In this document: one piece after another, positions 6,209 to 43,963 of the stretch
Layout: each line of letters starts with the position of its first letter
How positions within the stretch are numbered: position 1 is the stretch's first letter
DNA from: Acidobacteriota bacterium
GTDB taxonomy: Bacteria; Acidobacteriota; Blastocatellia; Chloracidobacteriales; Chloracidobacteriaceae
Direction: 5' to 3'
Assembly (NCBI GenBank): GCA_016208495.1
Contig: JACQXX010000021.1
Location: forward strand, 1-50,889
DNA: 50,889 nt
Made by a program: the position numbers and the translations under genes
The notes under the pieces: model-generated
The model's input: only the letters and a program-made list of their open reading frames with translations
Told to the model about the DNA's origin: nothing
Database searches by the model: none

Positions 6209-6661
6209 TCAATCAAATATGTACCGCTCATCATAGGGAATTCCATGGGCTTTTAGAAACGCCACAAATTCCTCTTCAAATGTCATTCGATGGTGATGAG
6301 ATTCTTGATTTTGGATGTATTGACGAACTTTTTCCATTTGTGATTGGCTGACTGAAAAGGCGCCATATCCACGCTGCCATTCAAACCGCGAATGAATGAA
6401 ACCGGATTCATTGACCCATTTAGAAGTGCTTGATTTCAAACTGCGAAGAAAATCAGATAGAGAATACTTTGGGTGCAAGCTCACCAACAAATGGACGTGA
6501 TCTGCCACACCTCCCACCTCAAGGGCGACACTGTCCATGCCTCGGACTGTGCCGCCCAGGTATTGATGAAGCTGTGAACGCCAACTTTCATCAATACATC
6601 GCTGACGGCGTTTGGTCGAAAAAACGATATGCATCAATGAATTGGTGAAGGCATGGGACAT
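6209..6661 (-). CDS. IS200-like / REP-associated tyrosine transposase (RAYT)
   Basis: A 150-residue Y1-type transposase of the IS200/IS605 TnpA superfamily, which cleaves and joins single-stranded DNA at hairpins. The HUH metal motif is HVH at 55-57 in GVADHVHLLVSL. The catalytic tyrosine is Y115 in QYIQNQESHHH, and the N-terminal strand LMHIVFSTKRRQ is typical. Length is normal for TnpA and the frame is intact, so it may be active. Unlike complete IS200 elements it lacks visible dedicated left and right ends. Instead REP-like palindromes flank it at 6121-6152 and 6686-7086, which fits a domesticated RAYT. An ordinary IS200 copy is the alternative. Confidence 0.85.
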   Translation of the reverse strand: MSHAFTNSLMHIVFSTKRRQRCIDESWRSQLHQYLGGTVRGMDSVALEVGGVADHVHLLVSLHPKYSLSDFLRSLKSSTSKWVNESGFIHSRFEWQRGYGAFSVSQSQMEKVRQYIQNQESHHHRMTFEEEFVAFLKAHGIPYDERYIFD

Positions 6662-10899: not shown

Positions 10900-11460
10900 T
10901 TACCTGATTGGAGCGCGCCCAATTGTATTTTCTGGCTGTAATGCCTGCTGAATTTGCTCAACCAGGGCGGTGTCGTGGCGTTGCTCAGCCCAGTTCAGTG
11001 CTTTTTGAAGGATCGGAATGGCTTCTGAATGGTTTGACTGCTCCAGAAAGAAGACCGCTCGCCGTTGCTGGTCAGGGTTTCCGCAGACCAGCGTTCGTTC
11101 GGCACGCGTCAGATACAGTGGTGCATCCAGTCTGGTCAGGAGGCGCGGGGCAAGGTCAGATGGATTGGCGGCAAGCATCCAATCGTCATAGAGTCGAAGC
11201 CGGTCAGGCTGGGGTAAGTGTTGAAACTGGGTTATTTCAGAGACTGAGAAATCTCCGTCCACGGCTGAATCAACCAGTGGTTTCAAATTTGCCGGGAGTG
11301 CCTGATAGGTTTCAGACCGGTATTTTTCAAAGAACGTGCGTTGCGTGGCAATTCCAGCCGCCAGGACCACACTGCCAGCAAAAAGGCCGCCAATCAGAAG
11401 GAGTTGTCCCGTTAGTGATCGAAGATCATCCGGTGAGAGCCGTTTATGAAGCGGTTGCAT
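10900..11460 (-). CDS. Single-span membrane protein, permease partner
   Basis: 186 residues from the ATG at 11460, with AGGACGG about 7-13 nt upstream; an in-frame TTG lies 18 nt earlier. One hydrophobic segment near the N-terminus (LLLIGGLFAGSVVLAAGIA) is followed by a mainly helical soluble region with repeated short helices (NPDQQRRAVFFLEQSNHSEAI, LQKALNWAEQRHDTALVEQI) reminiscent of TPR or HEAT-like packing. The start overlaps the end of the permease-like gene by 17 nt, a translationally coupled arrangement that strongly suggests the two products work together. No family recognised. Confidence 0.7.
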   Translation of the reverse strand: MQPLHKRLSPDDLRSLTGQLLLIGGLFAGSVVLAAGIATQRTFFEKYRSETYQALPANLKPLVDSAVDGDFSVSEITQFQHLPQPDRLRLYDDWMLAANPSDLAPRLLTRLDAPLYLTRAERTLVCGNPDQQRRAVFFLEQSNHSEAIPILQKALNWAEQRHDTALVEQIQQALQPENTIGRAPIR

Positions 11461-13184: not shown

Positions 13185-13315
13185 CTAAGGGATAAGGGAA
13201 CAGAGCCCGATCTGGACAAGGGGACAAGAGGACAAAGGGACAAGGAGAAAAACATTCTCCCGCTCCCAACGCCGGGAGGAGGATCTCCTTGTCTCCCCAT
13301 CTCCTTATCTCAAAC
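13185..13315. repeat. Inverted pair of short tandem repeats
   Basis: Left arm of GGACAAG-type units (13215-13245, including GGGACAAGGAGA) and right arm of complementary type (TCTCCTTGTCTCCCCATCTC, from 13285) around a short spacer. It is one of the bookended intergenic arrays in the window and lies between the permease-like gene and the icd terminator. Confidence 0.6.
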
Positions 13316-20345: not shown

Positions 20346-20350
20346 GACAG

Positions 20351-20450
20351 AATGAAGAATCTTTTGAGTGAAGAATGAAGAAAAAATCCGCATAATTTCT
20401 CAATTCTTCATTCTTCATTTTTCATTCTCAATTCTCAATTCTTCATTCAG
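20351..20450. repeat. Inverted pair of GAATGAAG / CTTCATTC arrays
   Basis: GAATGAAGAAT-type units on the left (20351-20380) and ATTCTTCATTC-type units on the right (20402-20450), separated by about 20 bases. The arms are complementary and could form one long hairpin between the mutase gene and the response regulator. Confidence 0.6.
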
Positions 20451-21177: not shown

Positions 21178-21370
21178 GGGTTCCGGGTTCCGGGTTCCGG
21201 GTTCCGGGTTCCGGGTTCCGGGTTTTCGAACCCAAACCCGAACGTCGTGTTATTTCAGATCCTGATAAGTCTTTGCGGAAAAAATTCCCCGTTTCTAAAG
21301 GTTCAATGATTGAACAGATTGTCTTCCCTGAACCCTGAACCCTGAACCCTGAACCCTGAACCCTGAACCC
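21178..21370. repeat. TTCCGGG heptamer array facing a CCCTGAA heptamer array
   Basis: Six perfect copies of TTCCGGG (21181-21222), a spacer of about 100 bases, then six copies of CCCTGAA (21326-21367). The right unit is the reverse complement of TTCAGGG, one base from TTCCGGG, so the arms pair imperfectly. It lies between the response regulator and the B12-binding subunit. Confidence 0.9.
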
Positions 21371-21440
21371 TAAATTGTGTTGCCCCACGCTTCAAAAACT
21401 GCCGTCTGGCAGAAAAAATTCAAATTTTGTTGAAAGAACT

Positions 21441-26817: not shown

Positions 26818-26824
26818 GAGAATG

Positions 26825-27012
26825 AAGAGTGTGGTTAGGAGTCGTTAAAAAACAAGTTCCCATTTTGAAAAAAAGTGCTATCCAGCCAAAGAGAGCGAAG
26901 AGTAAGGGACTGTAAAAATACAACTTCCCGTTTTTATCGAAAGTCACCCGGAGAGATCCAATTTCAGAACAGGAAGGTTTCTAACCACTCATCACTAGCC
27001 ACTAACCACTAT
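26825..27012. repeat. GTGGTTAG / CTAACCAC inverted pair
   Basis: GTGGTTAGGAG at 26830-26840 faces CTAACCACTCATCACTAGCC and ACTAACCACT just before 27012. The right array reaches to within about 30 bases of the rpiB start. A related larger array is at 31720-31842. Confidence 0.6.
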
Positions 27013-28650: not shown

Positions 28651-28781
28651 TCCGGGTTCCGGGTTCCGGGTTCCGGGTTCCGGGTTCCGGGTTCCGGGTT
28701 CCGGGTTCCGGGTTCCGGGTTCCGGGTTCCGGGTTCCGGGTTTTCGAAGTGAGCTTCATTCTTCATTCTTCATTCTTCATT
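28651..28781. repeat. TTCCGGG heptamer array (12 copies) and CTTCATT array (4 copies)
   Basis: Twelve perfect TTCCGGG copies at 28657-28740, then TTTTCGAA as at 21223-21230, then four CTTCATT copies at 28754-28781, ending 3 nt before the methyltransferase ATG. The whole deoC-methyltransferase gap is repeat DNA. Confidence 0.95.
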
Positions 28782-28784
28782 TCT

Positions 28785-29447
28785 ATGTCAAACACCAGCG
28801 CTTTTGTTCAAAACGATATTCACAATTATATTTTGTCAGTCACACTGCGGGAACCTGAGCTTTTACAGCGATTACGGGAAGAGACTGCCAGCCATCCGAT
28901 GTCGCGAATGCAAATTGCGCCGGAGCAAGGACAGTTTATGGCCCTGCTGGTTCAAATGCTTGGAGCCAAAAAAACACTCGAAATAGGTGTTTTTACTGGC
29001 TACAGCTCGCTCAGTGTTGCCCTGGCTCTGCCGCCAGATGGAAAAATTGTGGCCTGTGATGTGAGTGAAGACTGGACCAATGTGGCCCGACGATACTGGA
29101 AAGAAGCCGGCGTTGAGCACAAAATTGATTTGCATCTGGCCCCAGCCGTCGAGACCTTGAGTCAATTGCTGGCTGATGGAGAAGCCGGAACCTTTGATTT
29201 TGCGTTTCTGGACGCCGACAAAGACAACTATGACACGTACTATGAACTTCTCTTGCCGTTGCTTCGACCCGGTGGCGCGATTGCGATTGATAATGTGTTG
29301 TGGTCAGGGCGAGTTCTTGATCCTGAGGTCAATGATGCCGATACGGTAGCGCTCAAGGAACTGAATCAAAAACTCCATCACGATGAGCGCATTAGCTTGA
29401 GTATGCTTCCGGTTGCAGATGGTTTGACGCTGGCGGTGAAGAGATGA
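28785..29447 (+). CDS. SAM-dependent O-methyltransferase, caffeoyl-CoA OMT family
   Basis: 220 residues from the ATG at 28785; the longer frame starts within the repeat. Class I methyltransferase fold: SAM motif I TLEIGVFTGYSSLSVALAL, motif II VACDVSEDWTNVA, and the metal-binding FLDADKDNYDTYYELL with the Asp residues that hold Mg in catechol and caffeoyl-CoA methyltransferases. LLRPGGAIAIDNVLWSG is also typical. The substrate is probably a catechol-like small molecule; none is indicated by neighbours. The start codon has no ribosome binding site because the CTTCATT array occupies that place. Confidence 0.92.
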   Translation: MSNTSAFVQNDIHNYILSVTLREPELLQRLREETASHPMSRMQIAPEQGQFMALLVQMLGAKKTLEIGVFTGYSSLSVALALPPDGKIVACDVSEDWTNVARRYWKEAGVEHKIDLHLAPAVETLSQLLADGEAGTFDFAFLDADKDNYDTYYELLLPLLRPGGAIAIDNVLWSGRVLDPEVNDADTVALKELNQKLHHDERISLSMLPVADGLTLAVKR

Positions 29448-29453
29448 AGTGAG

Positions 29454-29710
29454 TCAGTAGTCAGTAGTTGATAAGTCAGTAGTCAGTAGACAAAACCCAG
29501 ATCGTTGAATCCAGGGAACTCTTGAAAAGAATTGTTCATAACTGACTCAAATAGAATAAAATACTCTTGACATGAACTCCCAAATCCCAACACTCGACTA
29601 CTGACTACTGACTACTGACTACTGACTACTGACTACTGACTACTGACTACTGACTACTGACTACTGACTACTGACTACTGACTACTGACTACTGACTACT
29701 GACTACTGAC
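29454..29710. repeat. GTCAGTA units facing a TACTGAC array (16 copies)
   Basis: Left units GTCAGTA (29455-29488, four copies in two pairs) face sixteen uninterrupted TACTGAC copies at 29599-29710. The units are exact reverse complements, separated by about 110 bases. The array ends 6 nt before the PP2C stop codon, in the convergent gap between the methyltransferase and the phosphatase. Confidence 0.95.
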
Positions 29711-29715
29711 CCAAA

Positions 29716-30822
29716 TCAAAACCCAACAATTTTGAACAACAGATATAAAACTGTGAGCAGTAAAATCGAACTCAACCCGATGAGGAGTTTGGTATGGGCC
29801 CGGGCGTAGCGTTCGCGGCGGATATTGAGCATCTCCCGAAGTTCCTGCCGGGTAAATTCGCCTGATCGAATCGGGTTGTAATCCTGCAACATATGAAATG
29901 AAGAGGAAATTTCTTCATTGTTGTCCGGCAGATTCAGGCTTGTTCCACTGACCTGAGCGATGACCACCGTTGCGTCATCGTGTGACCCACGTTCGCGTGC
30001 CATTTCGGAAAGTCTGGCTGTTGCCGCGGCTGGTGACTTAGCAGCCAGAACCGTCGCCAATATTTCATCATTCGACACAGTGTTGTACATTCCATCGCTA
30101 CATAAAATCAGCCAATCGCCTTGTTTGACATCAACGCTGGTTTGGGCCACGGTCACGGTGCTTCGTAATCCAACCGCCTGCAATACCACGCTGTTTCCAG
30201 TGCTATAACTAGCATCTGTGCGCGACATCTCGCCATTCTTGACTAACATTTCCGAGACGGATTGATCTTCGGTGACCTGCCGTAACGTGCGATTTCGCAA
30301 CAGGTAACATCGAGAATCGCCAACTTCGACCACGTGAGCGGTGCGACCAAGCAACAGGACGGCGGTTAAGGTGGCGCCCATCCCGTGCCAGGCTGGATTA
30401 TTTTGCCAGGCTGACCAGACGCGTTCGTTGGTTGCCTCAACCGCTTCGAGAAAAGCTTCTTCGGGTGGGCGTTGTTTGTAGCGGACAATCCATTCTTCGG
30501 AAAGTGCCTGCACCGTTAAACCACTGGCAATTTCACCAGCCAGATTTCCTCCCAGGCCATCCGCCACCGCGAGCAAAATGCCTTTCGCTCCAACCGGTGC
30601 CGCCAGCGTATCACCAGCTTCGGCCCGGCGATGTTGATCGGTGTGAAACACCAGGAAATTGTCTTCATTGGCAATATGGGTTGTGCCCTGGGTGCTCAGG
30701 CCGCAGGCGGTCGCTCGGACGTCAAAGGAAAGTTGAAGCGACCGGAGTTCACTCAGCCGATCGGAACTGGGACCAAATGCCGAACTGGAGTCGCTAAAGG
30801 GCGGGCTCATAACAGCAACCAT
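29716..30822 (-). CDS. PP2C-family serine/threonine phosphatase, membrane-anchored
   Basis: 368 residues. The PP2C/Stp1 domain (about 30-290) has GTTHIANEDNFLV, LLAVADGLGGNLAGEIAS, EVGDSRCYLLRN, LILCSDGMYNTVSNDEI and SHDDATVVIAQV, supplying the Asp residues for the two metals. A single C-terminal helix (LLIGLSSILLLTVLYLLFKIVGF) ends the protein, so the catalytic domain faces the cytoplasm. It should reverse phosphorylation by Hanks-type kinases, one of which is encoded two genes away at 31853-33520. ATG at 30822 with GAGGT about 12 nt upstream; a second ATG lies four codons in. Confidence 0.92.
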   Translation of the reverse strand: MVAVMSPPFSDSSSAFGPSSDRLSELRSLQLSFDVRATACGLSTQGTTHIANEDNFLVFHTDQHRRAEAGDTLAAPVGAKGILLAVADGLGGNLAGEIASGLTVQALSEEWIVRYKQRPPEEAFLEAVEATNERVWSAWQNNPAWHGMGATLTAVLLLGRTAHVVEVGDSRCYLLRNRTLRQVTEDQSVSEMLVKNGEMSRTDASYSTGNSVVLQAVGLRSTVTVAQTSVDVKQGDWLILCSDGMYNTVSNDEILATVLAAKSPAAATARLSEMARERGSHDDATVVIAQVSGTSLNLPDNNEEISSSFHMLQDYNPIRSGEFTRQELREMLNIRRERYARAHTKLLIGLSSILLLTVLYLLFKIVGF

Positions 30823-31597: not shown

Positions 31598-31719
31598 GGC
31601 AAACTCGCTTCCTTTTTGGGAGATGAACTCTTCGTCTAGAAGAAAACAAATGTGAGGCTGGATAAACACTTATGCACCAAGCCACGCCAGATGTAAAGCT
31701 ATATAAGAATGAAGAATGT

Positions 31720-31842
31720 GATTAGTGGCTAGTGGTTAGTGATTAGTGGTTAGTGGTTAGTGGTTAGTGGTTAGTGGTTAGTGCGTGGTTCTTGGTTCTT
31801 CTTCGAAAGCATTGATTTCTAACCACTAACCACTAACCACTA
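31720..31842. repeat. TTAGTGG array facing CTAACCA array
   Basis: Five perfect TTAGTGG copies (31743-31777) with degenerate copies on the left, a spacer of about 45 bases, then three CTAACCA copies (31819-31839). The units are reverse complements. The right array ends about 12 nt before the kinase stop codon. Confidence 0.92.
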
Positions 31843-33629: not shown

Positions 33630-33815
33630 CATGGGGCTTAGGGCTTGGGGCTGAAGACTCGCAAGCTCGGAGCAAAGGAAGGGATGAGGGATGAAAGATG
33701 AGGGATGAAAGAAAACCAATTCTTCAGCCCTCAGCCCCAAGCCCTCAGCCCTGGTTTTCTCAGCCCGACTGCTTCAGCCCGACTGCTTCAGCCCGAAATT
33801 TTCAACCCACTTTCT
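33630..33815. repeat. GGCTTGGGGCTGAAG / CTTCAGCCC inverted repeat cluster
   Basis: Within the 310-bp gap between the divergent kinase and DUF58 genes. Left arm GGGCTTGGGGCTGAAG (33640-33655), middle GATGAGG/GATGAAA heptamers (33684-33711), right arm CTTCAGCCCTCAGCCCCAAG (33724-33743) and three CTTCAGCCCGA units. A near-identical layout is at 38650-38815. No promoter could be picked out. Confidence 0.85.
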
Positions 33816-36187: not shown

Positions 36188-37168
36188 ATGCCGTTTGATA
36201 ATTTGTGCAAATATCTGGCAGAGCAGTATCCACTGGACTTTGCCGAATGGATTTTAGGATACCGGCCTGCTCAATCTGAAGTTCTGAAAACAGAACTCAG
36301 CATTGAGCCGGTTCGGGCTGATTTTGTGACCTTTCTGAAAATTGAAGGGCGCATTTTGCATATTGAGTTTCAAGTCAATGCCGATGCCAAACCCCCGATG
36401 GAATTTCGCCTGTTGGAATATTGGGTTCGGCTCTATCGGCAGTATCAACTTCCAATTACTCAGGTTGTGGTCTTGCTGAAAGATTCGCTGGCAGCTCGGA
36501 ATCTGCCCAGTGAATTTCGGGCGGAAAACACCTTCCACCGGTTTCACATTATTCGGATGTGGGAACAACCACCCCAATTTTTTCTGAACAGTTTGGGGCT
36601 TGTCCCGCTCAGTGTGCTGACACAAACTTCGGATCCAGGTGATTTGCTTCGGCAGGTTGCCACCAAACTCAACACTATCTCTGAACCAAACCAAAGACGA
36701 GACACCCTGGCCTGTGCCCAAATCCTGGCTGGGCTTCGGTTTGACAAAAATCTCATCAAAAGCTTATTGCGGGAGCGTGTTATGCGGGAATCAGTGATTT
36801 ATCAGGAAATTTTAGAAGAAGGCTTGCAGGAAGGTCGTGAACGCGGTTTACAACAAGGACTGCAGGAAGGTTTACAACAAGGACTGCAGGAAGGTTTACA
36901 ACAAGGACTGCAGGAAGGTTTACAACAAGGACTGCAGGAAGGTTTACAACAAGGTTTGCAACAAGGTTTGCAACAAGGCCAGATTCAGGGAGAGCAATTT
37001 ATAATTTTGCGGATGCTGGCTCAGAAATTAGGAAATTTGCCAGATCATTTAATTTCGCAAATTAAACAGTTGCCAGCGTCGTCACTTGAAATTTTGGCTA
37101 TCAAACTTTTTGATATATCTTCGGTTGAGGATGTTCAAAATTGGCTGGCTTCGCATCCAGTTGAATAG
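36188..37168 (+). CDS. Rpn-family / DUF4351 PD-(D/E)XK nuclease-like protein
   Basis: 326 residues. N-terminal nuclease-like domain with Asp45 (RADFVTFLKIEG) and Glu60-x-Gln62 (LHIEFQVN), the E-x-Q version of the PD-(D/E)XK motif seen in Rpn and transposase-like proteins. Residues about 205-265 are a low-complexity run of LQQGLQEG octapeptides, from 24-bp DNA repeats. The C-terminus (RMLAQKLGNLPDHLISQIKQL, LEILAIKLFDISSVEDV) matches DUF4351. Rpn proteins cut DNA and promote RecA-independent recombination. AGAGGG lies about 10 nt before the ATG. It stands alone and may be a mobile or defence-related passenger. Confidence 0.85.
   Translation: MPFDNLCKYLAEQYPLDFAEWILGYRPAQSEVLKTELSIEPVRADFVTFLKIEGRILHIEFQVNADAKPPMEFRLLEYWVRLYRQYQLPITQVVVLLKDSLAARNLPSEFRAENTFHRFHIIRMWEQPPQFFLNSLGLVPLSVLTQTSDPGDLLRQVATKLNTISEPNQRRDTLACAQILAGLRFDKNLIKSLLRERVMRESVIYQEILEEGLQEGRERGLQQGLQEGLQQGLQEGLQQGLQEGLQQGLQEGLQQGLQQGLQQGQIQGEQFIILRMLAQKLGNLPDHLISQIKQLPASSLEILAIKLFDISSVEDVQNWLASHPVE
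36848..36943 (+). repeat. Four perfect 24-bp tandem repeats inside the Rpn gene
   Basis: Unit TTA CAA CAA GGA CTG CAG GAA GGT, coding LQQGLQEG. Four exact copies are followed by degenerate LQQG units to 36979. The unit is a multiple of three, so copy-number change keeps the frame. Confidence 0.95.
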
Positions 37169-37184
37169 AAACTATACTCATTAT

Positions 37185-37272
37185 GAAGGATGAATTATGA
37201 ATTATGAACTGGCTATTTAATTGAAAATCAAGTAGTTCGTTCATTCATAATTCATAATTCATAACTCATAAT
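37185..37272. repeat. ATGAATT / AATTCAT inverted pair
   Basis: ATGAATT units at 37190-37208 face TTCATAA units at 37244-37268, spacer about 35 bases. It lies in the convergent gap after the Rpn gene. Confidence 0.75.
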
Positions 37273-37280
37273 TACTATAA

Positions 37281-38649: not shown

Positions 38650-38815
38650 CTTGAGGCTGAAGAAACCAGGGCTTGGGGCTTGGGGCTGAAGACTCGCAGG
38701 CTCGGAGCACAGAAAGGGATGAGGGATGAAAGATGAGGGATGAAATAAAACCAATTCTTCAGTCCTGAGCCCCAAGCCCTGAGCCCCAAGCCCTGAGCGC
38801 GAAGTCTTCAGCCCG
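38650..38815. repeat. GGGCTTGGGGCTGAAG / CTTCAGTCCTGAGCCCC repeat cluster
   Basis: Same layout as 33630-33815: CCAGGGCTTGGGGCTTGGGG and CTGAAGACTCGCAGGCTCGG on the left, GATGAGG/GATGAAA heptamers (38717-38743), then GAGCCCCAAGCCCT units and CTTCAGCCCGAGG on the right. The right end runs into the oppD reading frame. Confidence 0.85.
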
Positions 38816-41774: not shown

Positions 41775-41960
41775 CCAGGGTTCAGGGTCATTAAGTACCA
41801 GGATAAGGATTTCAGGTCCGAAGGGTCGCCGTTCAATAGCCGTGGCGCGAAGCCCACGGGAAGAGAATGGAAAAAGAATTGATTCGAAAACCCTGAACCC
41901 TGAACCCTGAACCCTGAACCCTGAACCCTGAACCCTGAACCCTGAACCCTGAACCCTGAA
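41775..41960 (-). repeat. Dispersed repeat copy B and CCCTGAA array (10 copies)
   Basis: 41775-41860 is the reverse complement of copy A at 402-500. Then ten perfect CCCTGAA copies at 41891-41960, facing the complementary TTCAGGG at 41781-41787. The array stops 2 nt before the oppA stop codon. Confidence 0.9.
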
Positions 41961-41962
41961 CC

Positions 41963-43579
41963 CTAATTCTGAATAGACACAAACTTCATTTGATGGGTGT
42001 CGAGCAGGTTGACGTGATACCCCTTGACAAAGGGCTTGGTCATAAAACTATTGGTGTAAAAATAAATTGGAATCAACGGCACCTGGTCAATCAGGTAATT
42101 TTCAGCCTCGGCCAGGATCTGAAGTCGTTTGGCCGGGTCTGATTCGGTGCTTGCCTGTTTGAGCAGCCCACCGTATTTGGGGTCAAGCCAGCCAGAGTGG
42201 TTATTGAGATTTTCAGTCTGGTAAATATCAAGAAACGTTGTTGGATCAAGATAATCACCCTGCCAGACGTCGCGGCATACATCAAAATCGCGTCGGTCCC
42301 ACCGGGCTTGGAAGGTTTGCCATTCTTCGTTTTGCAGTTCGACCGTTAATCCAAGATTTTCTTTCCACATGCGCTGAATTGTTTCAGCAATCTGTTTATG
42401 GCTTTCCTGGGTGTTGTAGTAGATGGTGAATTTCGGAAACCCTTTTCCATCTGGAAAGCCAGCCTGAGCCAACAACCGTTGGGCTTCGGGTGGGTTAAAA
42501 TCAGGGCCTTTGAGCACCGGATACCCTGGAATCCCTGGTGGAATGAGCATCGTGGCTGGTTGAATGATTCCATTAAAGAGTTTTTCGGCAATTTCGCGTT
42601 TGTTGATCGAAAGGTTTAACGCCTTTCGAACCAGCGGGTTATCAAAGGGTTTTCGGGTGACATTGATCGAATAATAATAAGTGCTGAAAAAGGCGCCAGT
42701 GCAGTAATCCTGCTTGGTTTGGATGATTTTCATAAACGGAAGCGGAATCAACCCGCTCGTCATCACATCCAGTTCGCCTGCTTTATACAAATTCATCGCG
42801 GCGGCGTCATTGACTGGTAAAAAGCTGATTTCATTGAGCTTCACTGTGGCTGCATCCCAGTAGGTGGCTGATTTGCGCAGCACAATCACATCATTGGGGC
42901 GATGTTCGGCCAGTGTAAAAGGTCCGTTCGTTACGATTTTCGCTGGTTCAACCCACTGTGCACCGTGGCGTTTGATGGTCCATTCCGGCAAGGGGACGAA
43001 CATAAAATGAGCGGTCAGTTTGATGAAAAATGCGGTTGGATGCTCCATTTCAACCCGGAGCGTCAAATCATCAACTGCCTGCACTCCAAGCGTTTCAACC
43101 CCCATTTCGCCGTTGCTGATCGCTTCGGCATTTTTCAAGCAAAACATCAGGGCGACATATGGCGAGGCTGTTTCCGGGTCAACCGCGCGCCGCCAGGCAT
43201 ACACGTAGTCGTGAGCCGTCACCGGGCGTCCATCTGACCAGCGGGAATTGTCGCGCAGGTGAAAGACCCAAACCTGGGCGTCATTGTGTGATTCCCACGA
43301 GACGGCACTCCCTGGAAGCGGCTCCAATGTCTCAGGATGGTAGACCGTCAATCCTTCAAACAATTCCTTAATGATATTGCTTTCCGCCACGCCAGTGGTC
43401 TTGTGAGCATCGAGTGAGCGTGGCTCAGAGTGGTTCCCGAAGACAATTTTTTGCTCTTTCGGGGCGACAATGGTCCCAAAATAGCCACCTGGTGGAATAA
43501 CACAGGCGGTCAAGGCACAACTTGCCACAAGCCAGGCAAGCGCGAAATACCTCGAATGATTGGACTTCAAGGTGGACAT
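41963..43579 (-). CDS. oppA: Oligopeptide-binding lipoprotein, OppA family
   Basis: 538 residues from the ATG at 43579; another in-frame ATG is two codons earlier and the rest of the upstream frame is repeat. Lipoprotein signal with lipobox LTAC and acylated Cys26. SBP_bac_5 domain: GNHSEPRSLDAHKTTGVAES, IIKELFEGLTVYHPETLEPL, WSDGRPVTAHDYVYAWRRAV, and KALNLSINKREIAEKL. It captures peptides outside the inner membrane and hands them to OppB/C. It is the first gene of the leftward opp operon. Confidence 0.94.
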   Translation of the reverse strand: MSTLKSNHSRYFALAWLVASCALTACVIPPGGYFGTIVAPKEQKIVFGNHSEPRSLDAHKTTGVAESNIIKELFEGLTVYHPETLEPLPGSAVSWESHNDAQVWVFHLRDNSRWSDGRPVTAHDYVYAWRRAVDPETASPYVALMFCLKNAEAISNGEMGVETLGVQAVDDLTLRVEMEHPTAFFIKLTAHFMFVPLPEWTIKRHGAQWVEPAKIVTNGPFTLAEHRPNDVIVLRKSATYWDAATVKLNEISFLPVNDAAAMNLYKAGELDVMTSGLIPLPFMKIIQTKQDYCTGAFFSTYYYSINVTRKPFDNPLVRKALNLSINKREIAEKLFNGIIQPATMLIPPGIPGYPVLKGPDFNPPEAQRLLAQAGFPDGKGFPKFTIYYNTQESHKQIAETIQRMWKENLGLTVELQNEEWQTFQARWDRRDFDVCRDVWQGDYLDPTTFLDIYQTENLNNHSGWLDPKYGGLLKQASTESDPAKRLQILAEAENYLIDQVPLIPIYFYTNSFMTKPFVKGYHVNLLDTHQMKFVSIQN

Positions 43580-43741
43580 AAGCATTGGGATACAACAAGT
43601 GGTTGAAATGGATCGTGAGAAAACGGTGCTGAATGGCCTGTGAGTTATTACTCTAAAGGCTGGAGATGACTTTTGGCAACCTGCGGGCTGGATTGCATCC
43701 ATCATTCCTTTTGCGTTAGAAACCCTGGACCGAGCGCCAGG

Positions 43742-43885
43742 ATGACAAAATGACAAGGTGACAAGATGACAAAATGACAAAATGACAAAATGACAAGGTG
43801 ACAAGATGACAAGGTGACAAAATGACAAGGTGACAAGATGACAAGATGACAAGGTGACAAAATGACAAAATGACAAGGTGACAAG
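43742..43885. repeat. Octamer array, ATGACAAR/GTGACAAR, 18 copies
   Basis: Eighteen head-to-tail 8-bp units alternating ATGACAAA, ATGACAAG, GTGACAAG and GTGACAAA in the 384-bp gap between the divergent oppA and carB. It is the only array here with an 8-bp rather than 7-bp period. CCCTGAA-type remnants follow to the carB start. Confidence 0.93.
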
Positions 43886-43963
43886 GTGATTTTATTTCAT
43901 CCCCCATCACTTCCGAAAATCCTGAACCCCAAACCCTGAACCCTCAGCGATATAAACACTACC

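What the first reader, a model, noticed from the sequence alone, without database searches (positions are those of the whole stretch)
29454..29710. Arrays come as reverse-complement bookends around a short spacer
At least eight gaps have array, spacer, reverse-complement array: GTCAGTA/TACTGAC (29454-29710), TTAGTGG/CTAACCA (31720-31842), ATGAATT/AATTCAT (37185-37272), GAATGAAG/CTTCATTC (20351-20450), GTGGTTAG/CTAACCAC (26825-27012), TTCCGGG/CCCTGAA (21178-21370), GACAAGGAGA/TCTCCTTGTC (13215-13300) and the GGGGCTGAAG/CTTCAGCCCC sets. The words differ but each gap pairs with itself, so any transcript would fold into a long hairpin. This could serve as terminator, RNase III substrate or a footprint of a hairpin-based copying process.
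Basis: partly seen in the sequence, partly recalled or inferred. Interest (0 to 1): 0.72.

Follow-up and report, generated by a model that had tools for sequence, protein, structure and literature searches.

The report
Mirror-image seven-letter repeats bracket gene gaps
In this bacterium and several relatives, many gaps between genes hold a run of a repeated seven-letter DNA word, a short middle piece, and then the mirror-image run, nearly always with the G-rich run first, so that each gap can fold into a hairpin; a similar pattern has been published for one word in another bacterial group, but how it arises is not known.

Summary
In 1.157 Mb of the window's genome, period 7 dominates tandem arrays. 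Of 321 arrays tested, 142 have an exact reverse-complement 10-mer within 300 bp on one side (3' of their G-rich strand) and 0 on the other. Strict pairs: 49 inverted against 19 direct; 48 of 49 have the G-rich arm first, one is a tie. Relatives repeat this: G001 28 inverted, 2 direct; G002, G014 and G026 together 6 and 0.

Many of the gaps carry dispersed foldback elements. The named GTCAGTA element has a 106-bp core with 99 matches in this genome and none found in four relatives. A second family has nested words around an 18-bp core. Words differ between genera in orthologous gaps.

Best reading: hairpin elements whose arms grow by 7-nt slippage and are kept matched partly by hairpin-templated copying. 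The copying step has only mixed support. A terminator role is not supported. Convergent G-rich heptamer pairs were already reported in Xanthomonas (PMC4692102), so this is a new variant of a known kind; the cause of the polarity is open.

The parts
29452..29489 (+). Left arm of the GTCAGTA element (G-first), with one degenerate GTTGATA unit
29490..29595 (+). Core of the GTCAGTA element: 99 matches genome-wide; three small conserved hairpins without covariation above shuffles
29596..29710 (+). Right arm, about 16 TACTGAC units, ending 5 bp before the stop of the next (minus-strand) gene
31718..31783 (+). GTGGTTA arm (G-first) of a core-A element; a GAATGAAG outer layer lies just upstream
31801..31818 (-). 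Core A (AAATCAATGCTTTCGAAG on the minus strand) in the loop of the nested element
31819..31842 (+). Reverse-complement arm (TAACCAC units), followed by outer CTTCATTC at about 31851
37180..37208 (+). Left arm, ATGAATT units
37243..37273 (+). Right arm, AATTCAT units
20350..20382 (+). Left arm, GAATGAAG-type units (degenerate)
20403..20448 (+). Right arm, TTCATTC-type units
21178..21224 (+). Left arm, GGGTTCC units, starting 1 bp after a stop codon
21326..21371 (+). Right arm, TGAACCC units (complement of GGGTTCA, one base different from the left arm)
26820..26838 (+). Left side of a nested element: GAATGAAG, then a single GTGGTTAG
26981..27011 (+). Right arm, TAACCAC-type units; the loop between holds another core, as also seen in L028
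13214..13245 (+). Left arm of octamer type, GGACAAGG
13284..13311 (+). Right arm, TCTCCTTGTC-type
33640..33707 (+). Left side of a GGGCTTG/GGGCTGA/GGGATGA element
33722..33797 (+). Right side, TCAGCCC/CAAGCCC arrays
38667..38745 (+). Left side of a second copy of that element
38764..38798 (+). Right side of that copy, CCTGAGC/CCCAAGC
28651..28742 (+). Unpaired array, 13 units of GGGTTCC ending in TTTTCGAAG; no matching right arm in the gap
41889..41964 (+). Unpaired array of about 11 AACCCTG units; no matching left arm

Best explanation
These gaps hold intergenic foldback (hairpin) elements, many of them dispersed copies. Shown: an element is an arm of tandem heptamers, a core or loop, and the reverse-complement arm; the G-rich arm comes first in almost every case; several families have conserved cores in many copies; words nest in a fixed order. 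Inferred: the arms lengthen and change word by 7-nt slippage, and the two arms are kept matched in part because a nascent strand folds back and copies one arm from the other (template-switch correction of an inverted repeat). Also inferred: where they sit (next to stop codons, seldom between divergent promoters) reflects tolerance. Speculative source of the polarity: the polymerase stalls on a G-rich template while making the second, C-rich arm, when its G-rich partner has already been made and can serve as a foldback template.
For: Reverse-complement partner on the inner side for 142 of 321 arrays and on the outer side for 0 (149 and 1 with 9-mers); G001 66 and 4 of 113. Strict pairs 49 inverted / 19 direct in G000, 28 / 2 in G001, 6 / 0 in G002, G014 and G026 together. 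Polarity 48 to 0 with 1 tie in G000; all 8 convergent, all 4 divergent and 28 of 29 tandem pairs are G-first, as are 8 pairs not placed in a clean gap, so it does not come from gene direction. GTCAGTA core: 99 matches in G000 (37 to 142 bits), none in G001, G002, G014, G026, with 150 first-look candidates scored in each genome. 68 of 86 G000 spacers (32 kb-scale samples chosen around GTCAGTA copies included) match another spacer, on both strands. Core-A family: 53 elements; GAATGAAG lies outside GTGGTTA in 36 of 37 left and 20 of 20 right sides that have both words. The variant GTCAGTC tends to occur in both arms (r = 0.65, p = 0.0006, n = 38); columns 25/152 of alignment A1 change from A-U to C-G together in 3 of 27 paired rows; of 7 carriers in the right arm, 1 has a nearest core that also carries it. 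GGGTTCN arms agree within elements (p = 0.037, 32 elements, not corrected for seven tests). About 100 bases of one G001 spacer lie inside AATTGAG arms at one place, inside GGGTTCA arms at a second, and without arms at a third.
Against: Variant agreement is mixed: GTCAGTN gives p = 0.03 when counted a second way; GTGGTTN (29 elements) shows none (0.875 against 0.873 permuted, p = 0.48); GAATGAN and three G001 words hardly vary (p = 1.0); core-A arms give p = 0.12, 0.04 and 0.04 at three flank widths. The four elements with the variant in both arms have somewhat more similar cores than average (0.874 against 0.816), two of them 0.943, so descent is not excluded. At 21178-21371 the arms differ in every unit. 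Arm lengths are not correlated in the GTCAGTA family (r = -0.11) and the right arm is longer in 30 of 40, whereas copying would predict similar arms. 179 of 321 arrays have no partner by the 10-mer test. Only 5 of 28 G001 spacers match another spacer in the smaller G001 sample. No enzyme that moves the elements was found. The spacer seen in two kinds of arms could be an element inserted into two existing loops.
Confidence: 0.5

Rival explanations
1. Ordinary non-autonomous mobile elements: the arms are inherited terminal inverted repeats that slipped independently; they match by descent alone, without copying between arms.
For: Conserved cores in many copies and both orientations; fixed nest order; arm lengths uncorrelated; a relative of one G001 spacer keeps the same word AATTGAG; no variant agreement for GTGGTTN; cores of variant carriers somewhat closer than average.
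Against: Inner-layer words differ around core A and one G001 spacer stretch lies in different arms; GTCAGTC tends to be in both arms while most nearest cores lack it. Target-site duplications were not examined, and no transposase was found beside arrays in the G000 loci fetched.
Confidence: 0.32
2. Functional RNA hairpins (bidirectional terminators, mRNA stabilisers or RNase III substrates) kept by selection.
For: Very stable folds; outermost arrays lie nearer to stops (median 20 bp, n = 193) than to starts (51 bp, n = 151); arrays in 38 of 94 convergent and 18 of 73 divergent gaps of 100-700 bp; 0 of 36 GTCAGTA elements between divergent genes; core hairpins kept in 97.2% of cells.
Against: No T-run beside the arms of three window elements by reading; loops up to several hundred bases; no clear core orientation bias in tandem gaps (16 against 11); no Rfam match in the window; no covariation in the core beyond shuffles; avoidance of divergent gaps is also what tolerance predicts.
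Confidence: 0.1
3. Polarity is imposed by translation: an A/C-rich leader is favoured upstream of start codons, and pairing carries this to the other arm.
For: In MacGregor 2015 (PMC4679880; abstract, passages and two sections read) most TAACTGA repeats sit just upstream of starts in one orientation; here too the C-rich arm faces downstream starts.
Against: All 8 strict pairs in convergent gaps, which have no start codon, are G-first; by position, 56 arrays in convergent gaps follow the rule and 9 do not.
Confidence: 0.03
4. Docking arrays for a DNA- or RNA-binding protein, or G-quadruplex sites, with the hairpin incidental.
For: Several words have runs of three G; quadruplex formation in vitro is reported for GGGAATC-type repeats (PMC4692102; abstract and discussion read).
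Against: Words such as GAATGAA, ATGAATT and AATTGAG have no G-runs; words differ within and between genera, which a single binding protein would hardly tolerate (inference).
Confidence: 0.05

Closest known systems
Convergent GGGAATC heptamer repeats of Xanthomonas (Rehm et al. 2015, PMC4692102; abstract, three sections and passages read)
   Same: Heptamer arrays mostly in gene gaps; two sites in convergent orientation in 70 (Xcc) and 75 (Xac) cases, which I read as the same G-rich-first polarity; near gene ends, rare between divergent genes.
   Different: One word family there, and no conserved spacers reported in what I read; here many words per genome, mostly matched to themselves, with conserved cores, nesting and word turnover between genera. 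That paper found only a few inverted pairs in Nostoc.
TAACTGA heptamer repeats of Beggiatoaceae, cyanobacteria and Bacteroidetes (MacGregor 2015, PMC4679880; abstract, passages and two sections read)
   Same: Intergenic heptamer arrays with a similar word.
   Different: Direct repeats; one inverted repeat among 170 sets in the genome studied in detail.
REPINs and REP sequences with RAYT / TnpA-REP (PMC3116915, PMC8266576; search listing only, details recalled)
   Same: Short inverted pairs, intergenic, many copies per genome.
   Different: Arms here are tandem heptamers, not short palindromes; the IS200-like transposase genes fetched from this genome have no such arrays beside them.
Foldback and Galileo elements of Drosophila (PMC4079207, PMC3573991; search listing only, details recalled)
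   Same: Long inverted arms with internal tandem repeats around a central part.
   Different: Eukaryotic and much longer; Galileo has its own transposase.
Template-switch origin and maintenance of hairpins (Monttinen and Loytynoja 2022, PMC8794818; abstract and opening read)
   Same: A replication error that makes and mends reverse-complement arms.
   Different: The part I read does not treat heptamer arrays or a polarity like this one.

Membership tests
Convergent G-rich heptamer repeats (Rehm 2015 type) | Tandem heptamers, mostly in gene gaps | tested here: met
   Period 7 dominates; 279 of 342 arrays lie in gaps called with a simple ORF finder
Convergent G-rich heptamer repeats (Rehm 2015 type) | Pairs with G-rich strands pointing at each other | tested here: met
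   48 of 49 strict pairs, 1 tie; inner 142, outer 0 of 321
Convergent G-rich heptamer repeats (Rehm 2015 type) | Word of type GGGNATC | tested here: not met
   Main words are GGGTTCN, GTGGTTA, GTCAGTA, GAATGAA, GGGATGA
REPIN / REP | RAYT-class transposase linked to the repeats | tested here: not met
   Nine PF01797 hits in G000: the eight loci fetched (about 2 kb each) hold no period-7 array; around the ninth, in the window at 6305-6646, one search lists no period-7 array between 500 and 20402
REPIN / REP | Each arm is itself a short palindrome | tested here: not met
   Arms are tandem heptamers
MITE | Many copies with terminal inverted repeats | tested here: met
   99 core matches; 40 copies with flanks read, nearly all with both arms
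MITE | Target-site duplication and empty sites | not tested
   Array ends are ragged and no close relative is held; G001 gaps are too diverged
MITE | Core and arms transmitted together | tested here: inconclusive
   Holds for GTCAGTA; one G001 spacer stretch occurs in two kinds of arms and in none
Intrinsic terminator | Short GC-rich stem followed by a T-run | tested here: not met
   Read in three window elements, both directions; no terminator scan was run
Known structured RNA | Match to an Rfam family | tested here: not met
   0 matches in the window at gathering scores
Foldback-type element | Long inverted arms made of tandem sub-repeats of variable number around a core | tested here: met
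   likeness only, no shared sequence with the eukaryotic elements was sought

The most novel reading that the evidence does not exclude
Heptamer bookends are the footprint of a general, strand-polar repeat-writing process: a 3' end folds back on a hairpin and adds 7-nt steps, so that any word can be amplified, but always as a G-rich arm followed by its complement. It would act independently in unrelated bacteria (here and in Xanthomonas).
Probability: 0.25. Interest if true: 0.8.

Novelty: new variant of a known kind. Interest (0 to 1): 0.55.

Why it matters
Heptamer arrays in bacterial gene gaps are an older observation whose cause and function the two papers read here leave open. The nearly absolute polarity, the self-matching of gaps with many different words, and about a hundred copies of one core in a single genome make it testable: any explanation must say why the G-rich arm comes first whatever the gene directions are. 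If arm-to-arm copying were confirmed, this would be a visible case of replication error building and keeping long hairpins.

Tried and rejected
Reverse transcriptase as the writer: among 12 genomes searched, PF00078 hits occur in G000, G001, G011, G014, G022 and G026 but not in G002, which has the arrays (90% complete). Two G000 RT loci were fetched: one RT is a stand-alone protein, the other looks CRISPR-linked (my recall, no call); one array lies in each 4-kb stretch, about the genome average. IS200-like transposases: no array in the eight G000 loci fetched; of five G001 loci fetched one has a single array; the one G014 and two G002 loci have none. RNA function of the GTCAGTA core: hairpins are kept (97.2% of cells paired, 30 to 62% when slid), but covariation does not exceed shuffles; an earlier count with misplaced columns is discarded. 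Core-A arm complementarity on all 89 fuzzy core matches (p = 0.0002) is discarded because many of those matches are chance and inflate it; the cleaned set of 53 (chosen by a GTGGTTA- or GGT-type word on the left) gives p = 0.12, 0.04, 0.04. Translation-driven polarity is contradicted by convergent gaps. A plasmid search with the TACTGAC array found no match, but the tool's low-complexity filter may hide such queries. The 106-bp core was sought in 58 genomes (the own one and 57 relatives) and found only in the own.

Limits: genes were called with a simple greedy ORF finder; the control is a first-order Markov resample; the relatives other than G001 were sampled thinly (57 to 120 kb each). Loci L016-L035 were chosen around GTCAGTA copies; they are left out of the counts called unbiased but used in family comparisons. 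In one search, 4 of 40 elements were dropped for want of two flanking ORFs. No call names the organism; a relative of Chloracidobacterium is my guess from genome sizes.

Full report
WHAT IS THERE. The window belongs to an 8.38-Mb genome in 177 contigs. Its gene gaps hold tandem arrays mostly of period 7. The lead case lies between a plus-strand O-methyltransferase gene ending at 29447 and a minus-strand PP2C-type phosphatase gene whose stop is at 29716: left arm 29452-29489 of GTCAGTA units, a 106-bp core, and a right arm 29596-29710 of about 16 TACTGAC units. Two long arrays in the window, 28651-28742 and 41889-41964, have no partner.

IS IT CHANCE. No. In a first sample of 357 kb there were 85 period-7 arrays with at least 14 matched positions, 18 of period 8, 9 of period 9, none of period 4, 5, 6, 10, 11 or 13, and none in Markov resamples. 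In 1.157 Mb not chosen for these elements, 342 arrays gave 119 neighbouring pairs under 400 bp apart: 49 inverted same-word, 19 direct same-word, 51 neither; random pairing gives about 8% for each of the first two. Of the 18 direct pairs that fall in the distance bins, 12 are less than 15 bp apart (mostly one array broken by a mismatch, to judge by their words), whereas at 60-130 bp there are 22 inverted and 0 direct. Seven loci from other phyla (93 kb) hold no period-7 array.

POLARITY. In 48 of 49 strict pairs the left arm is the G-rich one; the last is a tie. A test that does not need two arrays asks whether each array has an exact 10-base reverse-complement match within 300 bp on the 3' side of its G-rich strand (inner) or on the other side (outer): 142 inner and 0 outer of 321 arrays tested (149 and 1 with 9 bases); direct matches 30 inner and 17 outer; in G001, 66 and 4 of 113; in G002 4 and 0 of 9, in G026 4 and 0 of 4, in G014 0 and 0 of 4. 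Within 15-400 bp the order G-rich then C-rich occurs 62 times and the reverse 2 times; neighbouring arrays 600 bp or more apart show the opposite tendency (C then G 66, G then C 17 of 157), as expected if bookends alternate with genes. Polarity does not depend on gene direction: all 8 convergent, all 4 divergent and 28 of 29 tandem strict pairs are G-first. In G001, 25 of 28 pairs are G-first, 1 is reversed and 2 are ties; these three are ATTTGC-type words, which keep one orientation among themselves.

DISPERSED FAMILIES. The GTCAGTA core is a family: 40 copies with flanks were read, and a model built from 29 of them gives 99 matches in the genome at E up to 0.001 (37 to 142 bits) and none in G001, G002, G014 or G026; the tool scored 150 first-look candidates per genome. 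Flanks of 36 copies: 27 tandem, 9 convergent, 0 divergent, although divergent gaps make up 73 of 449 gaps of 100-700 bp. A second family has the 18-bp core AAATCAATACTTTCGAAG; 53 elements were kept, 35 of them in the unbiased sample, with GAATGAAG outside GTGGTTA in 36 of 37 left sides and 20 of 20 right sides that have both words; 20 of 53 right sides have all three layers (inner AACCA, TAACCAC, TTCATTC) and 5 have none. Overall 68 of 86 spacers in G000 match another spacer in the sample, about equally on both strands; in the smaller G001 sample 5 of 28 do. Two G001 spacers searched against that whole genome had two and one relatives at 74-77% identity. Of the two relatives of the first, one lies inside GGGTTCA arms and one has no arms, while the query has AATTGAG arms; the relative of the second has AATTGAG arms too. 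So core and word can part company, either because words change or because an element was inserted into another's loop.

RELATIVES. Arrays like those of the window recur in relatives: GTCAGTA-type in G002 and G014, GTGGTTA-type in G002, GGGTTC-type in G001. Six window gaps have orthologous genes on both sides in G001 (after 22818, 25054, 25909, 26817, 27670 and 28644). None carries the same word in both genomes. G001 has bookends in four of them (GGGAGTC, GAATTGA-like, GGTAAAT-like and GGACTGA); in those four the window has almost no gap or other words. In the fifth neither has an array, and in the sixth the window has the GGGTTCC array and G001 nothing. The GTCAGTA gap itself can be compared on its left side only; there G001 has no gap.

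COPYING BETWEEN ARMS. In the GTCAGTA family the variant GTCAGTC occurs in both arms of 4 elements, in the left arm only of 6, in the right arm only of 2, and in neither of 26 (n = 38; r = 0.65, permutation p = 0.0006). Counted another way p = 0.03. Of 7 right-arm carriers, 1 has a nearest core that carries it, but the four concordant cores are somewhat closer to each other than average (0.874 against 0.816). GGGTTCN: p = 0.037 (one of seven tests, uncorrected). GTGGTTN: no agreement (p = 0.48). GAATGAN and three G001 words hardly vary. Arm lengths are uncorrelated and the right arm is longer in 30 of 40. Core-A arms: p = 0.12, 0.04, 0.04. So copying is plausible, not proven. The process itself, template switching that makes and mends hairpins, is published (PMC8794818, abstract and opening read).

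PRIOR ART. Rehm and colleagues (PMC4692102; abstract, sections on Xanthomonas repeats, intergenic position and discussion, and passages read) found 186 and 183 GGGAATC arrays in two Xanthomonas genomes, with 70 and 75 cases of two sites in convergent orientation, placed near gene ends and rare between divergent genes; they leave the function open. MacGregor (PMC4679880; abstract, passages and two sections read) described TAACTGA arrays, almost all direct. No paper of the library holds Acidobacteri, heptamer, tandem repeat and intergenic together; the capped listings showed no other paper on inverted heptamer arrays by title or abstract start.

VERDICT. Real, strongly non-random, and a new variant of a known kind: multi-word, mostly self-matched, nested and dispersed foldback elements with nearly absolute polarity. 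The terminator reading is not supported; the copying reading is partly supported; the cause of the polarity is open.

Noticed in passing
window 6209-6661 (-): IS200-like Y1 transposase (NF033573, PF01797) near different palindromes of CCTGCGAAGCAGG type, not heptamers.
   Followed up: partly
window 33640-33797 and 38667-38798: Two similar composite repeats (GGGCTTG, a shared GACTCGCAAGCTCGGAGCA-like piece, GGGATGA arrays), apparently a further dispersed family.
   Followed up: partly
window 36845-36978: 24-bp tandem repeat (5.6 copies, 95% matched) inside the ORF of an Rpn-type nuclease/transposase (TIGR01784).
   Followed up: no
window 43741-43889: Octamer array (GATGACAA) running into the start of the mechanically listed ORF 41963-43876 (-); the true start is probably further in.
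   Followed up: no
L026 about 10900-11050: One right arm grades from TACTGAC through TCATCAC and TAATCAC to TAACCAC, as if the words had evolved from one another.
   Followed up: no
G000 contigs C56, C92, C59, C32, C138, C97: GTCAGTA elements lie at or within about 40 bp of contig ends, so the draft assembly probably breaks at these repeats and copy counts are approximate.
   Followed up: no
L177 868-2418 (+): Stand-alone reverse transcriptase of 516 aa just behind a short TACTGAC array.
   Followed up: partly
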